Both the position numbers and the translations under genes were made by a program. Of a stretch of DNA of 64,000 nucleotides, positions 38,393 to 50,109 are shown piece after piece. Location: positions 62,001 through 126,000 of the forward strand of contig JAFSIC010000043.1 of assembly GCA_017439985.1 (NCBI GenBank). Direction: 5' to 3'. The number at the start of each line of letters is the position of its first letter. Position 1 is the first letter of the stretch. Origin of the DNA: Oscillospiraceae bacterium (lineage in GTDB: Bacteria > Bacillota > Clostridia > Oscillospirales > Ruminococcaceae). The notes under the pieces are model-generated. The model did not search any database. It saw nothing but the letters and a program-made list of their open reading frames with translations, and was not told where the DNA came from.

Positions 38393-38953
38393 TTAGTCCA
38401 CCCAATATTTGATGTTTGGCTTTGGATAGTCCACACCGAAGGTTTCTACTTCCACATGAACCATAAATTCATCCACAACAGGCTGTTTTACTTTTGCTTT
38501 TTCCATGCCTTTTGGAGAAACTTCCTGCAGCTCCACATTCTCGATGCGTTCCACTTCTTCATAGCCGTCAATGACTTTACCAAAAGCTGCGTATTTGCCG
38601 TTCAATCTCTCAGCTGCCTCGTCTGCAAGAGTGATGAAGAATTCACAGCCGTGAGCTTCGTCACTGCCGTTGCCTGCCATCGCAACGATGCCTTTCGCAA
38701 ATTTCAGCTCGTTTTTGATGCCATTGGCTTCAAATTCGCCTTCCAGCATATAGTCACAGCGCTTATCATCGAAGAAGCAGTAAGACGGCTGCAGCACAAA
38801 GCCCGGAACCACACGTTTGATCAGACGGTTTTCGTACATATTTTCTTTGGCAGCCCAGATAAAGCTGTTTACTGTATTTGGTGCGTATTCTGGGTACAGT
38901 TCCACAGTAATGACGCCTTTGCCGGTATGGATTTTTGCGATTGGATGTTTCAT
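38393..38953 (-). CDS. Cyclophilin-type peptidyl-prolyl cis-trans isomerase
   Basis: 186 aa from the ATG at complement 38953 (MKHPIAKIHTGKGVITVELYP), GGAGG upstream; the frame also opens two codons earlier with TTG. Cyclophilin features: YPEYAPNTVNSFI, LIKRVVPGFVLQ, GSDEAHGCEFFITL and YAAFGKVIDGYE. The cytoplasmic type, no signal peptide. The end of the protein extends past the core fold. Confidence 0.92.
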   Translation of the reverse strand: MKHPIAKIHTGKGVITVELYPEYAPNTVNSFIWAAKENMYENRLIKRVVPGFVLQPSYCFFDDKRCDYMLEGEFEANGIKNELKFAKGIVAMAGNGSDEAHGCEFFITLADEAAERLNGKYAAFGKVIDGYEEVERIENVELQEVSPKGMEKAKVKQPVVDEFMVHVEVETFGVDYPKPNIKYWVD

Positions 38954-39023
38954 TCTCAATTCCTCCTCATGGATTTTCTGGCTTCATTATAACACAAGCC
39001 TGCATAAATAGCTATCATTTCAC

Positions 39024-39062
39024 TGAAAAAGCCCTCTCCCCGTGGTATTAGGAGAGGACTCT
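39024..39062 (-). terminator. Terminator of the CotH chimera gene
   Basis: Minus-strand stem AGTCCTCTCC / GGAGAGGGCT followed by TTTTT. Confidence 0.83.
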
Positions 39063-39063
39063 T

Positions 39064-41175
39064 TTAGTTCAGAGTATCTTTCAGCTCACTATAAGAAAGT
39101 GCTCGACCGTAAATTTCACAGCTATGAATCGTTCCATGGAAGAACTGACTGTTCTGTCCGTTTTCCATCACATGATGACAACCGATATACAGACTGTCGT
39201 CATGAATCGCCGGCTGACTGTAATCACCCCAAATGGAGCAATCCACCACTTGTTCTGTACCGTGAACCTTGTATCTCACCACTTCCGGCAGGCCCTTACG
39301 GAATACAAGCACCAGTTTCAGGCGCTGGGAAGATTTGATGTCGCCGCTGAACGAGGAACCGCCTGCGTTAGGCATACCGTACAGCTCAATGGTACCGTCG
39401 CCCCATGGATTGGTTCGAAGATCCAAACCACCGTAGTAGCCACCCGTTTCACCGGTACAGCAAAGGATATTCTGGTTGCGTCCGCTTTCGCTCAGATCGC
39501 CCTGTGTCAGGTCCAGAATAACGCTGAAATCCTGAGCTCTGCTGAACAGTTTTACACCGCTGTCCACATAGGTGCTTCCGTCAAAAACAGTCTCCTCCAT
39601 GGAGAAGAGTAGCTTGTCTTTGCCTCCCATTACATCGAACTGTTCATCACAGTAAGTCAGACGCTGACAGATAAAATCTCTCATCTGCTGAATGGTCAGC
39701 TGACCTTTCAGGTACTGATTTGGCCAAATTTCTTCCTCCTCGGCATAAAGCTCCGAACCGATCCATTCATCCATACGTTCTGCTTTACTGAACAGATTTG
39801 GGATGCTGTAAACTGTGCGGCGCAGTTCACAATAACGCTCATACAGTTCCTGTGGATACAGCTTTTCCAGTCGCTCCCACAGCAGGCTGTATGGCTCTTC
39901 AAACTGATCCGGACAATCCATCGTAGGACTTGCAAAACCATTTTCCCAGTGAATACCGAAACTGCGGTCCATGTCATTCGCACCACAATGCCAGATGGTT
40001 CCGTCATAGGTGGCAAGCAGAATATTTTTTGCCATACCATCCACACCACAGATCACATACTGATGAATGAAATAATCCAATGCACTCTGCACATCCAGAT
40101 GCTCAGCAATATGTTCTTTGAATGTCTCGTCATCACTGTCTTTGATGCAGGAAATCAGCGCGTTCAGTGAGTTTTTCAGTGTCTCGTTATTCTGACCCGC
40201 AATGACACTCCACGCCTCACCGTCGACACCATTCCACAGAGCGCGGAAGTTGCATGGTGTTTCCGTCAAGCTGCTGCCGCTGTTGATTTCCGCACAGAGA
40301 AGTGCATGATTTGGGTTTTCATCATCCATATTCCACTGCCATGCGGATTTCGGGATGGTCCATGTATAGACGCCCTGATAAATGCCGTTGACATACAGCT
40401 TGATCGGGAAAGCATCCGAAGCACCGAAATTAGAACTTGCACGCAGCTCCTGTGGAAGCTCTCTGCTTGCCGCCGCTTCGCTCCACAACTGAGCGCCCAG
40501 CCAGTCGCGCAGCTGTGAGTGATCCAGATAATTTGCCCTAAGTACAAAATGATGATGAGGCTTCCAGTCACGGAAAGCATGAGCTTCATTGGTTTCATGG
40601 GCTTCATCCGTGTACAGATGAATGGTATAGTTTTTCTTCGGATATACAGCAGAACTATCGCCTTGCACTGCCAATGATACAAAGCTGTGGAACTCATCGC
40701 TTTTAGAGCGATACTCCAGTTCCATCGGCAGTATGCCCTCCTCCTTGTTGTTTGGCAAGGTACCGCTCAGATAGACACGAGGCAAATCATCGTCGGCCGG
40801 TTCCAGCTTTGCGATGATTTCCGGACGCGGAAAATCTCCACCCTCCAGACTGCCCGATGTCTCCACTGTGAAACGAGCCAAATCGGTTACGATGCGCTTG
40901 GAAACGCGGTTGTTTTCGTAACATTCGCCGTGAACGCATACCTCCCAGCAGCCTGAACCCAGATTCAAACCTGCTTCCGCAGGAATGCGGTCCTCAGTCA
41001 GCGGCAGATCATAAACCTGTTCGCCCTGTCGAAAATGTGCCCACTTCGACAGGCCATTCCAATCGTTGCCGAGAAAGACAAAGTCTGCTTCAAAGTAATT
41101 GATCGTGTCCGCGACCATGACAGACGGAACATAGACCTGCAGATTTTGACCTTCGATGTTGAATTGTAATTTCAT
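39064..41175 (-). CDS. CotH kinase-like protein with phage-baseplate-like N-terminus and LamG-like C-terminus
   Basis: 703 aa in three parts. Residues about 1-115 (MKLQFNIEGQNL..., FVFLGNDWNGLSKWAHF, WEVCVHG) resemble the N-terminal domain of clostridial phage tail/baseplate (BppU-like) proteins. About 130-500 is a CotH domain: VQGDSSAVYPKKNYTIHLY, LRANYLDHSQLRDWLGAQLW, and CGANDMDRSFGIHWE, the Asp-rich active-site block. About 530-703 looks like a LamG/concanavalin lectin fold (KLLFSMEETVFDGSTYVDSG ... GRALSYSELKDTLN). CotH phosphorylates spore coat proteins in Bacillus. No signal peptide. Its base composition and codon use resemble the surroundings, so it is not clearly a recent import. The role (spore coat, or a structure with phage ancestry) is open. 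Confidence 0.82.
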   Translation of the reverse strand: MKLQFNIEGQNLQVYVPSVMVADTINYFEADFVFLGNDWNGLSKWAHFRQGEQVYDLPLTEDRIPAEAGLNLGSGCWEVCVHGECYENNRVSKRIVTDLARFTVETSGSLEGGDFPRPEIIAKLEPADDDLPRVYLSGTLPNNKEEGILPMELEYRSKSDEFHSFVSLAVQGDSSAVYPKKNYTIHLYTDEAHETNEAHAFRDWKPHHHFVLRANYLDHSQLRDWLGAQLWSEAAASRELPQELRASSNFGASDAFPIKLYVNGIYQGVYTWTIPKSAWQWNMDDENPNHALLCAEINSGSSLTETPCNFRALWNGVDGEAWSVIAGQNNETLKNSLNALISCIKDSDDETFKEHIAEHLDVQSALDYFIHQYVICGVDGMAKNILLATYDGTIWHCGANDMDRSFGIHWENGFASPTMDCPDQFEEPYSLLWERLEKLYPQELYERYCELRRTVYSIPNLFSKAERMDEWIGSELYAEEEEIWPNQYLKGQLTIQQMRDFICQRLTYCDEQFDVMGGKDKLLFSMEETVFDGSTYVDSGVKLFSRAQDFSVILDLTQGDLSESGRNQNILCCTGETGGYYGGLDLRTNPWGDGTIELYGMPNAGGSSFSGDIKSSQRLKLVLVFRKGLPEVVRYKVHGTEQVVDCSIWGDYSQPAIHDDSLYIGCHHVMENGQNSQFFHGTIHSCEIYGRALSYSELKDTLN

Positions 41176-41244
41176 GTTTCATTCCTCCTTTGACTCCATC
41201 ATACCCCTGCGGTCCTTTTATTTCGTCCGCCAAAATTCCGCAAA

Positions 41245-41303: not shown

Positions 41304-42701
41304 ATGCATGAAAAAGCCGGCTATTTGCTGAGAAATATGTTTTATTTTGGGCTTGGAAGCATGATCCCAAAGATACTGACGATGCTCGTTGTGCCGTTGT
41401 ACACCACCTGTCTGAGTCCGGCTGAATATGGCACTGCCGACCTGCTGTTCAGCACTTCCGGTCTCTTTCTCGCCCTGTTTACATTAAATATTTCAGAGTC
41501 AGTCCTTCGCTTTGCTATGAACCAAAGCTTCCCCCAAGAGCAGATTCTCGCAGCTTCCCTGCGGGTCATGCTGACAGGCAGCGCCATACTTGGATTGGGG
41601 CTCCTGCTCTTTTCTTTCCTTATGCCGTCTGCGGACCGCAGTTTACTCATTCTATTCTATCTGACGTTTCTTTCTCTTGGACTGGATAGTATGATCTCTG
41701 CTTTCTGTCGAGGCATTGACCGCATTAGCGTGCTGATTCAGGGGCAAATCCTGCATTCTGTCTTGACGCTTTGTATCAATCTGCTCTTTTTGCTTGTGTT
41801 CCGCTGGGGGTTGAGGGCTTATCTGCTTGCCTCCATCCTTTCCTACCTGTCCTCAACACTGTACTGTATGCTTCGTTGTCAACTGCTGCGCTCCTTGAGC
41901 CTTCGCTGTTCTCACACCATCCTAAGGGAAATGCTGGCTTACTCTGCCCCTCTGGTTCTCAGCACAGCGGCTTGGTGGCTCGGTTCTGTCATGGACCGCT
42001 GGCTTTTGAATTGGTATCATGGCGCGGCAGCTGTCGGCTTATACGCGGTTGCTTTTAAAATCCCTGCGATTTTCACGGCATTTCAAAGTGTTTTCTCGCA
42101 GGCTTGGCGTCTTTCCGCCATCAAGGATCTGGATCCGACAGATCAGGATCACTTCATTGCTAAAGCATATGAAACCATGAAATCCTGCCTCATTCTTCTC
42201 TGTTCTCTTCTGCTTTTGTTCCATCAGCCATTGGCTACCCTTCTTTACTCCAAGGAATTCTATGCTGCGTGGAAATATACCCCCATCATCCTGCTTTCTC
42301 TGTTATTCAGCGCTTTCTCCCTGTTTCTTGAGGATTTGTATCGCGGACTGAAAAACAGCAAAGTTATTTCGCTGACTCTCTGCTTCGGAACTATCGTGAA
42401 CCTCCTGTTTAATCTGCTGTTGATTCCGCAGTTCGGCATCTATGCTGCTGCTTTTTCCTCACTGCTCAGCTCTATGGCAGTGTGGGGACTGCGCCGTTTG
42501 ATACTGCGAAAATATATTCATCTTACACTTCAAAACAAAAGTATTTTTGCCTGCATTCTCTTGATTCTGCAAAGTGGATTCGCCTGCCTTGGCGAGTCTG
42601 CATTTCTTCCGCAGCTTCTGCTGTTTCTTGGCTTAGTGCTCCTGTATTATCGCGAGTTTTTGGCGATGATGCAAAAAAATAACAGGACAAGACACATTTA
42701 G
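41304..42701 (+). CDS. Oligosaccharide flippase family protein (Wzx-like)
   Basis: 465 aa from the ATG at 41304 with AAAGGAGG seven bases upstream; the open frame extends 38 codons upstream without support. Twelve to fourteen hydrophobic helices; the start AGYLLRNMFYFGLGSMIPKIL and the PLYTTCLSPAEYGTADLLFS loop are typical of the polysaccharide export (PST/MVF) family. It would flip an undecaprenyl-linked repeat unit outward. It is convergent with the polymerase gene: stops overlap by four bases inside one terminator. Confidence 0.88.
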   Translation: MHEKAGYLLRNMFYFGLGSMIPKILTMLVVPLYTTCLSPAEYGTADLLFSTSGLFLALFTLNISESVLRFAMNQSFPQEQILAASLRVMLTGSAILGLGLLLFSFLMPSADRSLLILFYLTFLSLGLDSMISAFCRGIDRISVLIQGQILHSVLTLCINLLFLLVFRWGLRAYLLASILSYLSSTLYCMLRCQLLRSLSLRCSHTILREMLAYSAPLVLSTAAWWLGSVMDRWLLNWYHGAAAVGLYAVAFKIPAIFTAFQSVFSQAWRLSAIKDLDPTDQDHFIAKAYETMKSCLILLCSLLLLFHQPLATLLYSKEFYAAWKYTPIILLSLLFSAFSLFLEDLYRGLKNSKVISLTLCFGTIVNLLFNLLLIPQFGIYAAAFSSLLSSMAVWGLRRLILRKYIHLTLQNKSIFACILLILQSGFACLGESAFLPQLLLFLGLVLLYYREFLAMMQKNNRTRHI

Positions 42702-42716
42702 TGTCTTGTCCTGTTT
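42681..42716. terminator. Bidirectional terminator overlapping the flippase and polymerase stops
   Basis: A perfect 15-bp stem AACAGGACAAGACAC / GTGTCTTGTCCTGTT with ATTTA loop. It has T-runs in both directions, and both stop codons lie in or next to the loop. Confidence 0.85.
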
Positions 42717-43954
42717 TCTTCTGTTTTGCAACTTTTCTTTCCATGAGCAAGGGCCAATGCCCAATAAAAAAGATAGGCAGCCTCCGTGCGCAGGGATGAA
42801 TTGTAAATCAAAATCAATAGTGCACAAACGGACAGCACACGACCGGTTTGACAATGGATGACATTGCCTCCTCTGCGCTGATTTCGGGCACAAAGATGCT
42901 CATTGAGAACGAAAAATCCAAAAACAAACAGTAAGCCCACCCAGCCCATCTCCAGATACAGAAAGGCTGTTGATAACCAGGTATAGTGAGAGTCACCGTA
43001 ACGCTGATAAAAGCTTGTATTCAGCAGTTCAAAATGGGATGTTTCGCAGTTTCCAAGTCCCAGACCAAAGAGTTGGCTCAGTGGGTCCTGCAAGAACCAT
43101 TCGTTAGCCAGTGGGATCACCGTCAGGCGATTAAAATCTCCGCTGGATGTATAGCCACGACTGCTGATTGCTGCTTTCAGCAAACCTTGCGGAGACAAAA
43201 CTTCCGTAAATTCCGGATAAAGTCCTATTAAAAGAATCGCCGCGCCAATCAGTCCCCCGCTTCCCAACAATATAAGGAGTGCACTGCGCCGGGAGGGGCG
43301 ATTGAGCAGCAACAGCAAGACTGTAATGAGGGCAAACTCTATATAGAAAATCTTCAGTTCTGCCAAAGCTGACAGCAGCAGCGCTGACGAACATTTCATT
43401 GAACAGCTGAGCAAATTCTCTTTCCCATTCAGGAAGCGACTCAAACTACGGCTGACAATGACAACAAAGAACAGATTGCTGTATGCATTGCAGCCTACTT
43501 CTGTACCGAAAATTCCGCCCAGATTGTCCTGACCCAAACCAAGAACAGCAAACTGATACAAACTCAGTGCCAAATTAAGCCAAAACAGTAAGTCAAAGAC
43601 GCGAAACACAGCTTCCGCATCCTGCTCGGTCTGAAACAAACAGACTGCCGCAAAGAACGGATAAAAGCGGAAATTATTCCTTGCACCCCACAGATAGTTG
43701 ATCATCGAACGATAATGAAACAAATATAAGAGCGCTGATGTCAGTACAAAAGCCAGCATCCAATACAGCAGCGGGCGAATGGGACGAAAATCAAGTTCTC
43801 TCCGATATAAAATCAGTAAAGCCAACAGAGCACACCAGCCAAGGTCAAGTACATATCGGCAGCTATATGGCATAAAACTGAGAAAAAACGGCAGCAATCC
43901 AAGCAGGAAAATGATATACTCGGCGAGACTGCGTTTACGAATCCGAAGATGCAT
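42698..43954 (-). CDS. O-antigen ligase/polymerase-like membrane protein (Wzy candidate)
   Basis: 418 aa with about ten to twelve hydrophobic helices and a large loop near 300-350 containing GLGLGNCETSHFELL and GDSHYTWLSTAFLYLEMGWVGLLF, the type of loop found in Wzy/RfaL proteins. It is last in the polysaccharide operon and overlaps the GT2 gene by 20 bp. Wzy polymerises repeat units at the outer membrane face (here, the outer face of the single membrane). Sequence conservation in this family is low, so the call is by topology and context. Confidence 0.78.
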   Translation of the reverse strand: MHLRIRKRSLAEYIIFLLGLLPFFLSFMPYSCRYVLDLGWCALLALLILYRRELDFRPIRPLLYWMLAFVLTSALLYLFHYRSMINYLWGARNNFRFYPFFAAVCLFQTEQDAEAVFRVFDLLFWLNLALSLYQFAVLGLGQDNLGGIFGTEVGCNAYSNLFFVVIVSRSLSRFLNGKENLLSCSMKCSSALLLSALAELKIFYIEFALITVLLLLLNRPSRRSALLILLGSGGLIGAAILLIGLYPEFTEVLSPQGLLKAAISSRGYTSSGDFNRLTVIPLANEWFLQDPLSQLFGLGLGNCETSHFELLNTSFYQRYGDSHYTWLSTAFLYLEMGWVGLLFVFGFFVLNEHLCARNQRRGGNVIHCQTGRVLSVCALLILIYNSSLRTEAAYLFYWALALAHGKKSCKTEENRTRH

Positions 43955-44960
43955 GACATCTCTCCTTCCAACATTGACATTTCAGCATGAGAAGGCACAG
44001 ATTTTCGCAGCGATGCTTCAGCAAAATGCAAAACAGACGCTTGGCTGTACTCATGGGGCGATAGTCACAGTGATGCAGTGCATCCTGTAAGCAAGCGTCT
44101 CTAAAAATCATTCGCAGTTCCTCGTCCTGTTTTGTGAGGCATAACTGCTTCATAAGACCCAGGCAGTTGTTTATGAAAGGATTCCCCACAGTATCCAGAA
44201 CTGTCTGAGGGTAGGCTTTTCTTCGACATAGGGCCAGCATCTCCCGATAACAATGGCAACAGCGCTCAAAGCGTTTTGCTTCATGGCTTCTGCTGAGAGA
44301 ATTCGCACGCTGACGGTATCGGTAGAGAGTTTGAGGAAGGAGGGTCACGCTGTGAACTTCAGACAGCAACTCCAACAGAGAATAGTGATCTTCCGAAATG
44401 ATCTCCCGTTCCGATACGAAACGCCACTGACTGCGGCGGAACAAATCTGCGGAATAAAGCAGAGACCATGCGCTGAAGCAGCAGTTTTCCCCACGAAGCA
44501 AACGCGGAAGAAATTCATTCTGTACTGCTTCTCCATGGTAGGACTCTTCTTTCCGTGCACCACTGAAATGCAGAGTCCTGCCCTTTTCACTGATGGTTTC
44601 GCATCCAAAGCTGATCAGCTCCGCTCCATTTTTCTCAGTAGCTTTCACAGCCTGCTCCACAGCTGTAGGCAAAAGAAGATCATCGCTATCCACAAAGCAG
44701 ATGTAGTCACCGTGACTGCAAGCGAGTCCGCTGTTTCGAGCATAGCCGAGCCCTTCGTTGCTTTTGTGGAAAACTTGAATCCTTCTGTCCCTCTCCGCCC
44801 ACGCATCGCAAAGCAGCGGACTGCGGTCAGTCGAGCCATCATCGACCAGAATGATCTCCAGCTCTGTGTAGCTTTGCGAGACAATGCTTTCTACACAATC
44901 ATCCAGCCATGGCTCCACATTGAAAATTGGAACAATAACAGAAACCAAGGGCTTATTCAT
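43935..44960 (-). CDS. Glycosyltransferase family 2
   Basis: 341 aa from the ATG at complement 44960 (MNKPLVSVIVPIFNVEPWLDDC), with GGAGG upstream. GT-A fold: LVSVIVPIFNV, DDGSTDRSP (about 38-46), and the metal motif CFVDSDDLLLP (about 85). Inverting transferases using nucleotide sugars. The gene overlaps its upstream neighbour by 8 bp and its downstream neighbour by 20 bp. Confidence 0.93.
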   Translation of the reverse strand: MNKPLVSVIVPIFNVEPWLDDCVESIVSQSYTELEIILVDDGSTDRSPLLCDAWAERDRRIQVFHKSNEGLGYARNSGLACSHGDYICFVDSDDLLLPTAVEQAVKATEKNGAELISFGCETISEKGRTLHFSGARKEESYHGEAVQNEFLPRLLRGENCCFSAWSLLYSADLFRRSQWRFVSEREIISEDHYSLLELLSEVHSVTLLPQTLYRYRQRANSLSRSHEAKRFERCCHCYREMLALCRRKAYPQTVLDTVGNPFINNCLGLMKQLCLTKQDEELRMIFRDACLQDALHHCDYRPMSTAKRLFCILLKHRCENLCLLMLKCQCWKERCHASSDS

Positions 44961-46035
44961 TGTTACTGCCCTCCCTGTTTCTCTCACAGGTCGATAGCAG
45001 ATCCAGTGCGTCCTTACTGATGAGGCCCCTTCGATGAGCGCTCACAGCCGGGATCTCTTCCATGGAATACGGCTTACCGAAGGACAGGAATTTGTGCTTC
45101 AGCACCCACCATGCAGGAATCCAGATATACTTATGCATCGCCGGAGAAACCGAACCGATCATCCAGCAGTTTCGGGAACAGTTTCTCACTTCCCGACGGA
45201 TACACTCCGCCTGTTCGCTGTTCCACAGTTCATCCCACGACTGAGAATTGAGGTTTCCCATGACCAATTTTTCTCGCGTGCCGTTGCAAGGCATCACATC
45301 TCCGTACGGATCGATGAAAAAGGTATCAAAGCTCATGTCGCAGGGCAGCAAACGTTTTTGACCGTAAATATAGCTGATCAGCCCATGATTGAAGTAAGCC
45401 CGGAACCACTTTTTCGGACTGTTGGAGTGCAGCAGCTCATTGACCAATCGCTCCAGATTTTGTGCAACCATCGGACGATCATGGATGATATTGTTTGTTT
45501 CCACGAAGTAGAAGCTGTTGTGCAGACTTGCCGTAGCAAACTCCATACCCAATTCATCGGATAAACGATACAGCGGCAGCAAATCGGAAGCATTGCGGTC
45601 CTGTACAGTCATACCGAAACCAATGTCCTTCATCCCCATTTCTTTCAGAGTGTTCAGTGTTTCATATCCACGGCGGAAGCCATCGTCCAGACCACGAATG
45701 GCATTGTTGGTTTCCTCCAAGCCCTCGATAGAAATGCGTATCCCCAGCTGCGGAAATTCTTTGCACAACTCGATGATGCGCTCAGTGAAGAATCCATTGG
45801 TGGAAATAACGATACGATCGCTTTTCTTGTAGAGTTCACGAACAATTTCATGCAAGTCCTCCCGCAGGAAAGGCTCTCCTCCGGTGATGTTAGTGAAATA
45901 CATTGCCGGCAGTTTGCGTATGGTTTCCAAAGTCAGTTCCTCTTCAGGACGGGAAGGCTCTTTATAACGGCTGCACATGGTACAATGTCCGTTGCAGCGG
46001 TAGGTCACAATGACCGTACCGTTCAATTTCTTCAT
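44953..46035 (-). CDS. Radical SAM protein (SPASM-like C-terminus) within the polysaccharide operon
   Basis: 360 aa from the ATG at complement 46035, GGGAG upstream. N-terminal cluster motif C-NGH-C-TM-C (CxxxCxxC) in VTYRCNGHCTMC, followed by the ITGGEPFLREDL glycine motif and ISTNGFF. Further Cys are C234 in LLPCDMSF, C248 in DVMPCNGT, and CSRNCW, suggesting extra Fe-S clusters as in SPASM/twitch proteins. Radical SAM enzymes of this type modify peptides, proteins or sugars; in this operon a sugar or lipid-carrier modification is plausible but not shown. It is translationally coupled to GT genes on both sides. Confidence 0.88.
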   Translation of the reverse strand: MKKLNGTVIVTYRCNGHCTMCSRYKEPSRPEEELTLETIRKLPAMYFTNITGGEPFLREDLHEIVRELYKKSDRIVISTNGFFTERIIELCKEFPQLGIRISIEGLEETNNAIRGLDDGFRRGYETLNTLKEMGMKDIGFGMTVQDRNASDLLPLYRLSDELGMEFATASLHNSFYFVETNNIIHDRPMVAQNLERLVNELLHSNSPKKWFRAYFNHGLISYIYGQKRLLPCDMSFDTFFIDPYGDVMPCNGTREKLVMGNLNSQSWDELWNSEQAECIRREVRNCSRNCWMIGSVSPAMHKYIWIPAWWVLKHKFLSFGKPYSMEEIPAVSAHRRGLISKDALDLLSTCERNREGSNNE

Positions 46036-46036
46036 A

Positions 46037-47179
46037 TCAGCACTCCCTTTCCATGGATTCAAAAACCTTATTGTATTGGGCAGCGATGGTATCCCATGAA
46101 AATCGCTCCTGCACCCTATGCCTCAGCTGTGCACTGTTCTGTGAACCTACAAGCTCCAACTCGCTTGGGAACAAATCCTTTGATTTTCCGCAGAAAACAA
46201 GCGGAACCGCTGCCGACATCGATTCTAACCAGACCAGACTAAAGGCCTCGTAGTCCGAACTATGCAGGGTGGCTTCCGCGCAGTTATAGAGTTCGTTCAG
46301 TTCTGCTCCCGGCGGGATGATTCCAAAATAGCGAAGCTGTTCTGCAACGTCTTCCTGTTTCGCCAAGGCAAGCAGGTCACGATGGTAGCTTTCATCTACG
46401 ATACCTCCCGCATAACCAAACAGCAGATTTTTATCCGCTTTCAGCTGCGGCAGCAAATACTCCAGAGAGCGCCGCTGGCCCTTATTTTCATTGACAGAAC
46501 CCACCTGCAGCATCAAGCGGTATCCTTCCAATCCCCACTTTTGGCGCAGCTTCGCCTTTTCTTCATGGGACAGCGGACGATAAATCGCCGTGTTGACTCC
46601 ATTTCCAATACGATAAACACGTTCTTTCGGCATCTGCAGATTCTGCAAAAGATTCTCTTCCATCTTCTGATTCAGAACAAACACTATGTCCGCCGACTTC
46701 ATACAGGCTATTTCCTGATAATAATTTCGACGAAGGAGGGCTTCCGCCTCTGTCCACTCTCTGCTCCAATGTCCGTTATGATTGGTATAAACGATTTTCG
46801 CCTTTTGCCGCAGTTTATGGGGCGTCAGCACTTGGAAAAAGAACTGGTTGTACTGATTATGAAAGTGCAGAATGACCGGCTCTTTACTGTTTTTCAGAAT
46901 AGTCTGCAGTTTCTGCGTCAAAGAGAGAGAATACAGCACCCTTCGTGCTTTATGCAGCAAGCCCAGCCGAACATCGCTGTTCCTCAACCAAGCCGGAAAA
47001 GGAACTTCTTCTATCGGCACTTCACAATCCTTGCGCTGAGGGTCTTCCATATCAAGAATGGTCACATCTACGCCAAGTTTCTGCAGAGAGCAGGATAATT
47101 CATAGACTACTGTTTCCGTCGCCGCAGAGATTTTCGGTGGAATGGATGTATAACCCGTTCCGATTTCATAGCATTTCAT
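46037..47179 (-). CDS. Glycosyltransferase family 4
   Basis: 380 aa, GT-B fold. N-terminal MKCYEIGTGYTSIPPKISAATE and the C-terminal donor-site block EATLHSSDYEAFSLVWLESMSAAVPLVF (ExxxxxxxE) are typical of GT4. It retains configuration at the sugar transferred from a nucleotide sugar. The next gene begins 2 bp after its stop, and it overlaps the gene before it by 14 bp. Confidence 0.9.
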   Translation of the reverse strand: MKCYEIGTGYTSIPPKISAATETVVYELSCSLQKLGVDVTILDMEDPQRKDCEVPIEEVPFPAWLRNSDVRLGLLHKARRVLYSLSLTQKLQTILKNSKEPVILHFHNQYNQFFFQVLTPHKLRQKAKIVYTNHNGHWSREWTEAEALLRRNYYQEIACMKSADIVFVLNQKMEENLLQNLQMPKERVYRIGNGVNTAIYRPLSHEEKAKLRQKWGLEGYRLMLQVGSVNENKGQRRSLEYLLPQLKADKNLLFGYAGGIVDESYHRDLLALAKQEDVAEQLRYFGIIPPGAELNELYNCAEATLHSSDYEAFSLVWLESMSAAVPLVFCGKSKDLFPSELELVGSQNSAQLRHRVQERFSWDTIAAQYNKVFESMEREC

Positions 47180-48374
47180 GCTGACCTCCGTACAATTTCA
47201 TCAGACTGTTGTAGTAGCTTTCAGAGCTTTCAAGAGGGATTCTTCCCTTAGCGATGAGGCGTTTTTGTAAGTCCTCATCCTTCCACAAGCGCTCGATTTT
47301 CTCCGCCAAATCATCGGCATTTCCCGCTTCAAAAAGCAAGCCGGCCTCACTATAACGGAGCAGCTCCGGGATACCTCCCATTCGGCTGCCCAAAACCACT
47401 GTCCCTAACATCTGTGACTCCAGAATCGAGTAGGGACAATTCTCATGCCAAAGCGACGGAACAAGCGTCATCCTCGCTTTACGAATCAAATTCTCCAGTT
47501 CTTTTCCGCTGAGAAAACCAACAAATTTTGCATTGTTGACTTTATTGATTTCGACTTCAGCGGGGCCAAAACCTGCAAATACAAAAGGAATGTCGGGCAG
47601 CATTTTGGCGGCCTCTAAGACAGTGAGGGTCCCCTTTTCTTCGGAAAGATGTCCGAATTCCAGCACATAATCTTCTTTTTCAATCGGTTGATCCGTTTCT
47701 TTTTCTATGAAATTATGTAGTACGATGCACTTTCCCCGAAATCTTTTGTCGCACTCCAGTTTATTTTTCATAAATTCGCTGGGACAAATGATATAATCCA
47801 ATTCATCATAAGCCTTGCTGCATTTCCAAACCACCGCATCGATCACAGCCAACAGGCTTTTCAGGTAGGAGTTTTTCACACATTTTCTTCTCAAACAGTG
47901 GACTGGAGAGCGATTCAAACAGCGTTCGCAACACTCACCTTTTGAATCCAGGAGGCTATGATTGGGGCAAATGAGTTGATAATCATGAGCTGTACTGAGC
48001 ACCCTCAAAGAGGCAGAATATTTTCGGCGATAATCCCGAACTGCCAACAGCACGGACGGTGTCAGATGATACTGAATATTATTAAAATGCACCACATCCG
48101 GCTGAAATGTTTCCAGAACCCGATACAGTTTTCGCCGCGCTTCCCGACAGTAAATCACACGCAGGGGTGCTGACCAATTTTTTCGGATCCCTGTGGAAAA
48201 ATCAATGGCAGAGACCTCTTCTTCCGCGGAATTTCCAACAAGATTCCGTTGGTCCGCCATGCCAAAATACTCCACTTGATGTCCCTGCCGTTTCAGCAGG
48301 TCGCCCAAACGAAACAGATAGGTCTCTGTTCCGCCTTTTGGATAGAGAAACTTATTGACCAGCAGAATTTTCAT
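47166..48374 (-). CDS. Glycosyltransferase family 4
   Basis: 402 aa. Opens MKILLVNKFLYPKGGTETYLFRLGDLL (glycine-rich acceptor loop) and has VVHFNNIQYHL and the C-terminal SEEKGTLTVLEAAKMLPDIPFVFAGFG block with LWHENCPYSILESQMLGTVV. A Cys-rich stretch CCERCLNRSPVHCLRRKC at about 145-162 is a typical insertion in a subgroup of bacterial GT4. Overlaps the upstream gene by 23 bp. Confidence 0.92.
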   Translation of the reverse strand: MKILLVNKFLYPKGGTETYLFRLGDLLKRQGHQVEYFGMADQRNLVGNSAEEEVSAIDFSTGIRKNWSAPLRVIYCREARRKLYRVLETFQPDVVHFNNIQYHLTPSVLLAVRDYRRKYSASLRVLSTAHDYQLICPNHSLLDSKGECCERCLNRSPVHCLRRKCVKNSYLKSLLAVIDAVVWKCSKAYDELDYIICPSEFMKNKLECDKRFRGKCIVLHNFIEKETDQPIEKEDYVLEFGHLSEEKGTLTVLEAAKMLPDIPFVFAGFGPAEVEINKVNNAKFVGFLSGKELENLIRKARMTLVPSLWHENCPYSILESQMLGTVVLGSRMGGIPELLRYSEAGLLFEAGNADDLAEKIERLWKDEDLQKRLIAKGRIPLESSESYYNSLMKLYGGQHEML

Positions 48375-49491
48375 GTTTGTGCCTCCTGTTCAATAAAATT
48401 TCATATTGGTTCAGAGTCTGTTCTGTAACCGTATCCCAACTCTCCAACTTCGTACTTCGAGCCCTTGCTTTGCGGCGAAATTCCTCCACAAGAATCGGTT
48501 TGTCGCAGAGCTGTTGGAGGCAGTCTCTCAGTTCAAAACCTTGACCTACTTCCACGCAGCAGCCACTTTCTCCGATCACTTCCCGACACTCCGGAATATC
48601 CGAGGTAACACAGCAGGCTCCATGACTCATTGCCTCCAGAAGCGTCAACGGCATTCCTTCCAATGAGGACGGCAAAAGATACAGATAGCAATTACTGTAC
48701 AGTTCTTCCAGCAAACTCCCCTCCACAAAGCCTGCAAAAAGGATACGTTCCTCTCCTTCTGCCAAATTGTACAAATGCCTCACATAGTCATCACTGTCGG
48801 AGCTCGCCCCTGCAATGACCAGTTTCTTATCGGTTTTCAGATGAAGAAACGCCTCTATCAAGTGATGGACTCCCTTTTCCGGAACGAAACGTCCAACAAA
48901 CAGCAGATAGGAATCTCGTTCCAGACCGAAACGTTTCCGAATTTCATTTGGCGGAAGTTCTTCACTCCGTGAGCATCCATTGGGAATACGGACCGTCTGA
49001 CGCTGATATTTCTGCAGGAAATACTCTTCTGCACTTTGACTGAGAACGATGATCTCATCCGCAAAATGCAGAGCCATTTTCTCTCCCCAATATAAAAAAC
49101 GAGAAGCAAAGCTCCCCTTCCACTTTTCTCTGTCCCAATCCAGACCATGGATCGTTACGAGCACATATTTTCCAGTCAGCTTTGGCAGAAAACTGAAAAA
49201 GGCCGGACCTTCTCCATGAATATGGACAACGTCACAATCGCTGAACATGGCATACAGCGCAGCAAAAAAGGCAGCGCTGACCGCAGCCAATCCTTTTTCT
49301 CGAATCGTTGGAACTGTACGCAACTGTACACCGCGGTATTCGCTATACTTTTTTGAGCTGTTCATTCTGCGGTTACAGCACAAAACACGATGACCTTTTG
49401 CCGCCATTCGGGTTGCCAGCTCCTCCACAGCAACTTCTATCCCACCCGCTCTGGAGGGCAGGTCTTTTTGTCCGAACATGATAATATTCAT
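48352..49491 (-). CDS. Glycosyltransferase family 4 (DUF1972-like rhamnosyltransferase group)
   Basis: 379 aa. The start MNIIMFGQKDLPSRAGGIEVAVEELATRM is like the first-transferase group that adds a sugar such as rhamnose to the initiating hexose. Donor block SSLEGMPLTLLEAMSHGACCV near 285-305. It is second in the operon, 3 bp after the sugar transferase, which fits action early in repeat-unit assembly (inference). Confidence 0.9.
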   Translation of the reverse strand: MNIIMFGQKDLPSRAGGIEVAVEELATRMAAKGHRVLCCNRRMNSSKKYSEYRGVQLRTVPTIREKGLAAVSAAFFAALYAMFSDCDVVHIHGEGPAFFSFLPKLTGKYVLVTIHGLDWDREKWKGSFASRFLYWGEKMALHFADEIIVLSQSAEEYFLQKYQRQTVRIPNGCSRSEELPPNEIRKRFGLERDSYLLFVGRFVPEKGVHHLIEAFLHLKTDKKLVIAGASSDSDDYVRHLYNLAEGEERILFAGFVEGSLLEELYSNCYLYLLPSSLEGMPLTLLEAMSHGACCVTSDIPECREVIGESGCCVEVGQGFELRDCLQQLCDKPILVEEFRRKARARSTKLESWDTVTEQTLNQYEILLNRRHKHENSAGQ

Positions 49492-49494
49492 CGT

Positions 49495-50109
49495 TTACTC
49501 TCCATTCATGCTGAGCACCGCACCAACGGTAGAAAGTAGGATTTTACAGTCCACGGAAAAGGAACGCTCCCGCAAATATTTCAAATCCCAACGCAGCCAA
49601 TCTTCAAAACTCAGGGAATTTTTCTTTGGCTGTACCTGCCAATAACAGGTCATTCCGGGCTTGATGGAAAGACGTCGCTTTGCTCTTTGATCATATTTTG
49701 CAGCTTCATCCGGCATGGCCGGGCGTGGACCCACGGCGCTCATTTCTCCACGCAGAACATTCCATAGCTGCGGCAATTCATCCAAACTGCTCTTTCGCAG
49801 GAAACGTCCAAAGCGAGTGATTCGAGGATCGTTTTTGATTTTGAACACAGGGCCATCCATTTCGTTGTATTGTTCCAGCTCTTTTCTCAATTCTTCTGCA
49901 TTTGGGCACATACTGCGGAACTTGTACATCGTAAATAGCTTCCCGTTCTTTCCCACTCGCTGCTGTGCAAAAATAGGAGACGCACCGGGACTATCCAGCA
50001 CGATGAGCAGCATAATAATCAGCATTGGAACAGAAAAGAGCAGCAGATTAAACAAGGCAAATCCAATATCACATAGCCTTTTGAATCGGCTATAAAGGCT
50101 TTTCTTCAA
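49495..50109 (-). CDS. Initiating sugar transferase (undecaprenyl-phosphate hexose-1-phosphate transferase)
   Basis: 204 aa with a TTG start at complement 50109 and AAAGGG nine bases upstream. A short N-terminus with one membrane segment (about 14-38), then the PGT core: QQRVGKNGKLFTMYKFRSMC, LRKSSLDELPQLWNVLRGEMSAVGPRP and RLSIKPGMTCYWQV. It puts the first sugar phosphate on undecaprenyl phosphate, starting synthesis of an exopolysaccharide or capsule. Short, single-domain form, as in many Bacillota. First gene of the operon behind a clear promoter. Confidence 0.95.
   Translation of the reverse strand: MKKSLYSRFKRLCDIGFALFNLLLFSVPMLIIMLLIVLDSPGASPIFAQQRVGKNGKLFTMYKFRSMCPNAEELRKELEQYNEMDGPVFKIKNDPRITRFGRFLRKSSLDELPQLWNVLRGEMSAVGPRPAMPDEAAKYDQRAKRRLSIKPGMTCYWQVQPKKNSLSFEDWLRWDLKYLRERSFSVDCKILLSTVGAVLSMNGE

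What the first reader, a model, noticed from the sequence alone, without database searches (positions are those of the whole stretch)
39064..41175. CotH kinase-like domain fused to a phage-baseplate-like head and a LamG-like tail
Seen: a three-part 703-aa protein: a beta-rich head like those of clostridial phage tail proteins, a CotH domain with its Asp-rich active-site block, and a lectin-like end. Known: CotH proteins phosphorylate spore coat proteins; baseplate heads anchor receptor-binding parts. Inference: the protein may be targeted to a tail-like or spore-surface structure and phosphorylate or bind there, a domain arrangement I do not know from standard examples.
Basis: partly seen in the sequence, partly recalled or inferred. 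Interest (0 to 1): 0.75.

Follow-up and report, generated by a model that had tools for sequence, protein, structure and literature searches.

The report
Lone phage-tail-type kinase gene
A bacterial chromosome carries, with no virus genes recognised around it, a single intact gene whose protein looks like an enzyme from the tip of a virus tail: a tail-docking head, a kinase of the kind known from spore coats, and a sugar-binding-like end.

The parts
39064..41175 (-). 703-aa gene: tail-type head + CotH kinase + LamG-like end
40855..41175 (-). head, residues 1-107: all-beta domain of the phrog_19695 type; predicted fold ranks nearest to phage baseplate proteins
39625..40791 (-). CotH kinase domain, residues 129-517
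40633..40638 (-). K180-K181 of the QGxSSxxxxKKN motif (K180 in 102, K181 in 108 of 110 distinct CotH domains)
40024..40041 (-). D379...N384, catalytic-loop pair (110 and 109 of 110); D379 corresponds by alignment and spacing to B. subtilis CotH D228 (inference)
39967..39975 (-). D401-M-D403, metal-binding-type pair (109 and 107 of 110); D401 corresponds to B. subtilis CotH D251 (inference)
39064..39594 (-). LamG/ConA-like end, residues about 528-703 (weak profile match, shared with viral CotH relatives)
41184..41189 (-). ribosome-binding site AGGAGG, 8 nt before the ATG
   Evidence: read from the sequence
39026..39064 (-). terminator-like hairpin straight after the stop codon (-21.9 kcal/mol, z -4.4)
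41304..42701 (+). context: divergent Wzx-type flippase gene, first of the surface-polysaccharide genes (ATG chosen by me)
38393..38959 (-). context: cyclophilin-type peptidyl-prolyl isomerase, 104 bp downstream

Best explanation
This is a phage tail-tip enzyme gene now standing alone in a bacterial chromosome. The protein is made in the cytosol (no signal peptide by eye). Its head is of the kind found on proteins of the distal tail region of clostridial phages and probably docks to the tail; its end probably binds a surface glycan; between them sits a CotH-type kinase with an intact active site that transfers phosphate from ATP. Because ATP is plentiful only inside the producing cell, I think the phosphorylation most likely happens there, on a tail or envelope component, before release; action on the target cell surface is the alternative. 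Shown: the CotH part and its intact residues, phage relatives of head and kinase, the lone position, its own ribosome-binding site and terminator-like hairpin. Inferred: docking, glycan binding, kinase activity, substrate. Not resolved: whether the host now uses the gene or merely carries it.
Confidence: 0.6

Rival explanations
1. Domesticated: the host keeps the gene for its own use, phosphorylating or binding its envelope or a competitor's, perhaps together with the neighbouring surface-polysaccharide genes; the head serves as an oligomerising or surface-docking module and the protein leaves the cell by lysis.
For: Intact ORF and catalytic residues; own RBS and terminator-like hairpin; codon usage nearer to genes outside the polysaccharide locus than to the polysaccharide genes (0.695 against 0.510-0.628, small and partly circular yardstick); no hallmark match in 104 kb. 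Of 20 other head loci fetched, 13 gave no hallmark match, and one pair (L241, L248, same genus) keeps a head gene beside the same neighbours, 38% identity over 539 residues.
Against: No match in any of 40 relatives, 5 of them of the same genus; no other of 391 class genomes matches the head part (E <= 1e-10); no partner genes seen; no signal peptide by eye. The 13-of-20 count leans high, see Tried and rejected.
Confidence: 0.22
2. Passive remnant: the last intact gene of a decayed prophage or phage-like element, without present function.
For: Single gene, narrow distribution; other head genes in Clostridia also lie near holin- and lysin-like genes (by eye) without further recognised phage genes.
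Against: Short intergenic spaces, 104 bp downstream and 128 bp to the chosen Wzx start, with its own hairpin; catalytic residues kept. Pseudogene debris was not searched for specially.
Confidence: 0.2
3. Spore-coat kinase: a CotH acting on spore-surface proteins, with the head as an unusual anchor.
For: Genome has SpoIVA; this is the only CotH match in it; CotH kinase activity shapes the coat in B. subtilis (PMC7821199, passages).
Against: CotH groups with phage-type domains; head is of a phage family; ten neighbours scanned are polysaccharide, transport, hydrolase and isomerase genes or without Pfam match. No Bacillus CotH was in the tree, so orthology was not tested directly.
Confidence: 0.07
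4. Assembly or binning artefact: a phage fragment wrongly joined into this contig.
For: The genome is a 63-contig draft; the one sister genome with a close isomerase shows another context, so the junctions have no confirmation.
Against: Gene sits inside a 147-kb contig with plausible gene ends on both sides; codon usage does not stand out.
Confidence: 0.05

Closest known systems
Phage proteins with a CotH domain (matches to phrog_9391, 27151, 28731, 9915; Klebsiella phage ST437-OXA245phi4.1 gp13; Bacillus phage G gp353; CotH-C-type-lectin proteins mentioned in PMC8008677)
   Same: CotH domain in a phage-encoded protein, in several cases with other N-terminal and C-terminal parts
   Different: No recognisable head of this type except in L056; phage-encoded, whereas this gene stands alone in a chromosome
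L129, BppU_N + Phage_fiber_rpt + CotH + Big_2 protein on a 9-kb contig of a Clostridia MAG (isolate cow5.11)
   Same: Nearest CotH found (49%), tail-type head at the N-terminus
   Different: Head is a BppU_N by Pfam (just over cut-off); end has an Ig-like Big_2 domain; longer (1260 aa)
L056, viral contig IMGVR_UViG_3300012979_000006
   Same: Same type of head (profile E 7.4e-8) fused to the same type of CotH
   Different: Head very divergent (19% identity, 22%), two Big_2 stretches, lies among tail-like genes (by eye)
N-terminal domain of phage TP901-1 ORF48 (PDB 3uh8; the BppU N-terminal domain by my recall)
   Different: No sequence similarity detectable between 16 heads and 6 BppU_N-like sequences, of which only L129's was checked by Pfam (hhalign probability 0.6%)
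CotH of Bacillus cereus (PDB 5jd9/5jda)
   Same: Kinase fold and catalytic residues
   Different: 15% identity; the solved chain matches residues 129-517 only, so no head and no lectin-like end; spore-coat protein

Membership tests
CotH kinase (PF08757) | profile match above the curated cut-off | tested here: met
   106.5 bits against 23.8
CotH kinase (PF08757) | atypical kinase fold of 5jda | tested here: met
CotH kinase (PF08757) | catalytic Asp pair (D228 and D251 in B. subtilis, per PMC7821199) | tested here: met
   D379 and D401 by alignment and spacing
CotH kinase (PF08757) | phosphorylates a protein with ATP | not testable with these tools
   needs an assay
Phage-tail CotH proteins | CotH within the phage-type group | tested here: met
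   80-row group 99*, 23-row clade 98*; quick tree, family CotH sampled by best score
Phage-tail CotH proteins | tail-type N-terminal domain on the same chain | tested here: met
   phrog matches, relatives in the tail region of annotated phages
Phage-tail CotH proteins | gene lies in a phage tail module | tested here: not met
   no match to 26 hallmark proteins in the window or 20 kb either side; no portal, no Sipho_tail
BppU_N (PF10651) | sequence profile match | tested here: not met
   no Pfam match of the target's head; no BppU_N match in any of 16 heads; hhalign 0.6%
BppU_N (PF10651) | BppU N-terminal fold | tested here: inconclusive
Laminin_G_3 / ConA-like lectin (PF13385) | profile match above cut-off | tested here: inconclusive
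   0.0054, below cut-off; target and 4 viral ends match at E <= 0.1, best 1.9e-4; no PDB profile match; model unreliable there
Spore-coat CotH | orthology with Bacillus CotH, coat-gene neighbours | tested here: inconclusive
   ten neighbours scanned show no coat family; no Bacillus CotH in the tree
Spore-coat CotH | found in spores, mother-cell expression | not testable with these tools
   needs proteomics or expression data

The most novel reading that the evidence does not exclude
Clostridia repeatedly capture single phage tail-tip proteins as chromosomal genes and keep them working; here the captured one is a tail-docking kinase that the bacterium uses to phosphorylate its own or a rival's surface.
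Probability: 0.17. Interest if true: 0.75.

Novelty: new variant of a known kind. Interest (0 to 1): 0.45.

Why it matters
Kinases of this family in phages are printed as existing but unstudied (PMC8008677, passage). The data here show a large phage-type CotH group, fused to different N-terminal and C-terminal parts, with the four key acidic and amide residues kept in 106 of 110 distinct domains, which makes the question 'why does a virus tail carry a kinase?' testable. The lone chromosomal copy offers a compact protein for biochemistry and a test case for domestication of tail-tip enzymes.

Tried and rejected
Spore-coat reading as the main explanation: set aside as unsupported. A hidden prophage at the locus: not found by phmmer with 26 hallmark proteins over the window and 20 kb on either side. 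That set was picked and labelled by eye from session loci, so absence is not proof. Among the 20 other head loci 7 matched, but 5 of these 7 (L235, L237, L239, L244, L247) supplied a query themselves and only L242 and L251 are independent hits; loci that supplied no query are less likely to be caught, several stretches end at contig ends, and one of the 13 negatives (L252) shows a phage head-type gene by eye. So 13 of 20 'without hallmark' leans high; I lowered the domestication and novel-case odds slightly for this. Codon usage: four of the five genes outside the polysaccharide locus (all but the isomerase, 0.796) are the yardstick itself, so their high values are partly circular. BFVD holds viral proteins only, so that the 32 matches at E <= 0.001 are viral is by construction. 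In one search the four phage CotH were chosen because they resembled the target, so that contrast with the family CotH is biased; the tree is the better test, with the limits named there.

Insertion at a tRNA: no tRNA in the window. Flanking direct repeats: only short ones, the longest resembling two ribosome-binding regions. Sigma-70 promoter: none listed just upstream on the minus strand. Empty site in a sister species: G001 has the isomerase (78%) in another context, so no empty site could be read. Head-only scans of viral contigs: A3 and A8 found nothing, A6 gave 3 loci; the single-protein scan with the whole target found nothing. PDB sequence searches: whole protein none, head profile one chance-level hit, phage 80alpha gp68 at E 0.81, C-terminal profile none. 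The C-terminal part of the AlphaFold model has pLDDT under 50, so its fold was not used. NCBIfam none. Co-occurrence: of 8 other order genomes with a CotH-end match, 4 also have a head match (31 of 393 others do; assumes the two calls drew the same genomes), hypergeometric 0.0018; set aside because 3 of the 4 are one genus and the CotH there carry lipoprotein-like signals (by eye). 'CotH kinase' with 'phage tail' and 'CotH' with 'BppU' gave 0 papers each. Of the listed papers I saw passages of six (PMC8008677, PMC7821199, PMC4159848, PMC4791379, PMC4428218, PMC10818511) and of PMC9012536 a reference; in PMC4791379, PMC4428218 and PMC9012536 'coth' is only part of an author's name; PMC10818511 names CotH as a poor structural hit of a haloarchaeal plasmid protein. 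The rest I saw as listings. The library holds open-licence papers only.

Rows dropped before counts: CotH domains under 250 aa or sharing over 60% of their 5-mers with a kept one were left out, and of the family CotH only the 30 best-scoring with loci (of 71 positive genomes) were used. In one search, 140 ORFs gave 111 distinct domains, 2 short ones were left out and the target added, making 110; the four that lack one of the four residues are L139, L148, L154 and the truncated L178. In some searches, 20 of the 31 non-own head places were fetched. The 140 CotH ORFs include contigs fetched twice; one search shows 109 distinct N-termini. The 28 rows of A5 (25 relatives' CotH, the target, two heads) were a selection.

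Full report
What is there. The gene is on the minus strand at 39064-41175, ATG start, 703 residues. It has AGGAGG 8 nt before the start and a hairpin followed by T right after the stop (-21.9 kcal/mol, z -4.4, 0 of 200 shuffles as good), so it reads as a single-gene transcription unit. On one side lie a cyclophilin (104 bp away), a HAD hydrolase and a MATE transporter; on the other, divergently, a Wzx-type flippase, followed by a 418-aa ORF without Pfam match and by glycosyltransferase, radical-SAM and sugar-transferase genes.

End. Residues 528-703 match Laminin_G_3 only weakly. Of 140 CotH ORFs in fetched viral and genome loci, 11, from 8 viral contigs, have a similar end, one of them (L060) weakly, and the target's and four viral ends hit Laminin_G_3 at E <= 0.1, best 1.9e-4. 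A glycan-binding role is an inference.

Relatives of the kinase. CotH is common in the host's family (71 of 148 genomes). In a quick tree of 112 rows, 80 rows (57 phage, 22 genome contigs, the target) form a group at 99*; the target pairs with L129 (99*) and sits in a 23-row clade with 20 phage rows (98*); the 30 family CotH, the best PF08757 scorers with loci, lie on the other side (support 82, drawn open), and the target is flagged for unusual letter make-up. 'Phage' there means taken from IMG/VR or the phage collection. Annotated examples in or by tail modules: Klebsiella phage ST437-OXA245phi4.1, after tail protein I, and Lactobacillus phage JNU_P11, downstream of the tape measure. L129 is BppU_N (24.1 bits, cut-off 23.1) + Phage_fiber_rpt + CotH + Big_2; L056 and L057 are CotH + Big_2 by Pfam. 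The group also contains proteins of Clostridia MAGs that look secreted (signals by eye).

How unusual is the pairing? With a 25-sequence head profile only L056 among the CotH ORFs has such a head (E 7.4e-8; the next CotH ORFs are at 0.38 and weaker). Of 24 loci with heads (20 fetched places plus L034, L046, L047, L049) none shows CotH in the fetched stretch. Head profile: 32 of 394 genomes of the order, the own included. CotH-end profile at 1e-20: 9 of 394, the own included. Whole protein at 1e-10: 6 of 391 genomes of the class, the own included, the other five matching from residue 123 on at the earliest. So the pairing is rare in what was searched, while tail-type head plus CotH as a plan is not unique.

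The lone position. No hallmark match in the window, L052 or L053 (104 kb), no portal, no Sipho_tail, one head and one CotH in a genome rated 94% complete. Codon usage of the target (0.695) is near murG (0.685) and below the isomerase (0.796), and above the polysaccharide genes (0.510-0.628); the yardstick is four genes, murG among them, so this is a rough indication. Among 20 other head loci, 7 have a hallmark match and 13 do not; this count leans towards 'none', as told under Tried and rejected. L241 and L248, of one genus, keep a head gene beside the same neighbours (38% identity over 539 residues; neighbours 54-77%). This suggests, without proving it, that such genes can be kept by hosts.

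Mechanism. Most likely the design is: head docks to a tail, end touches a glycan, kinase modifies a component with ATP. Since a free virion has no ATP supply (general knowledge), I favour modification inside the producing cell before release; surface action with ATP from lysed cells is the main alternative. None of this is shown by experiment here.

Known or new. [quoted passage not shown] PMC4159848 (table row seen) lists CotH in 6 diversity-generating target proteins. The ten literature searches listed no paper on CotH with BppU or on 'CotH kinase' with 'phage tail'. I therefore call this a new variant of a known kind, of moderate interest.

Noticed in passing
L233, L238, L240, L241/L248, L245, L249, L250: The same tail-type head occurs in Clostridia chromosomes, in most of these loci next to small membrane (holin-like), amidase, M23 or CHAP-like genes (labels by eye), with no hallmark match: possibly a recurring head-holin-lysin cassette, remnants or domesticated lysis units.
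   Followed up: partly
L243 6321-9200: A head protein with a calcineurin-type phosphoesterase end (Metallophos 1.8e-8) and a weak collagen match stands beside LicD- and glycosyltransferase-like genes (by eye), a parallel to the window gene.
   Followed up: partly
L130, L132, L134-L138, L141, L149, L153: Phage-type CotH domains also occur in proteins of Clostridia MAGs whose N-termini look like signal or lipoprotein peptides (by eye); domain exchange between tails and secreted proteins is likely.
   Followed up: partly
phrog_9391, phrog_27151, phrog_28731, phrog_9915: PHROG families of unknown function whose profiles match the CotH part of the target; they may deserve the name CotH kinase-like.
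   Followed up: no
window 41304-50109: Eight surface-polysaccharide genes have lower codon adaptation (0.51-0.63) than the genes compared outside the locus, as expected of a horizontally acquired island; small yardstick.
   Followed up: no
G285, G397, G442, G536: Four of eight other genomes with a CotH-end match also have a head match elsewhere (hypergeometric 0.0018), though three are one genus.
   Followed up: partly
L095 6791-8044 and 9283-10533: One viral contig carries two CotH genes facing each other.
   Followed up: no
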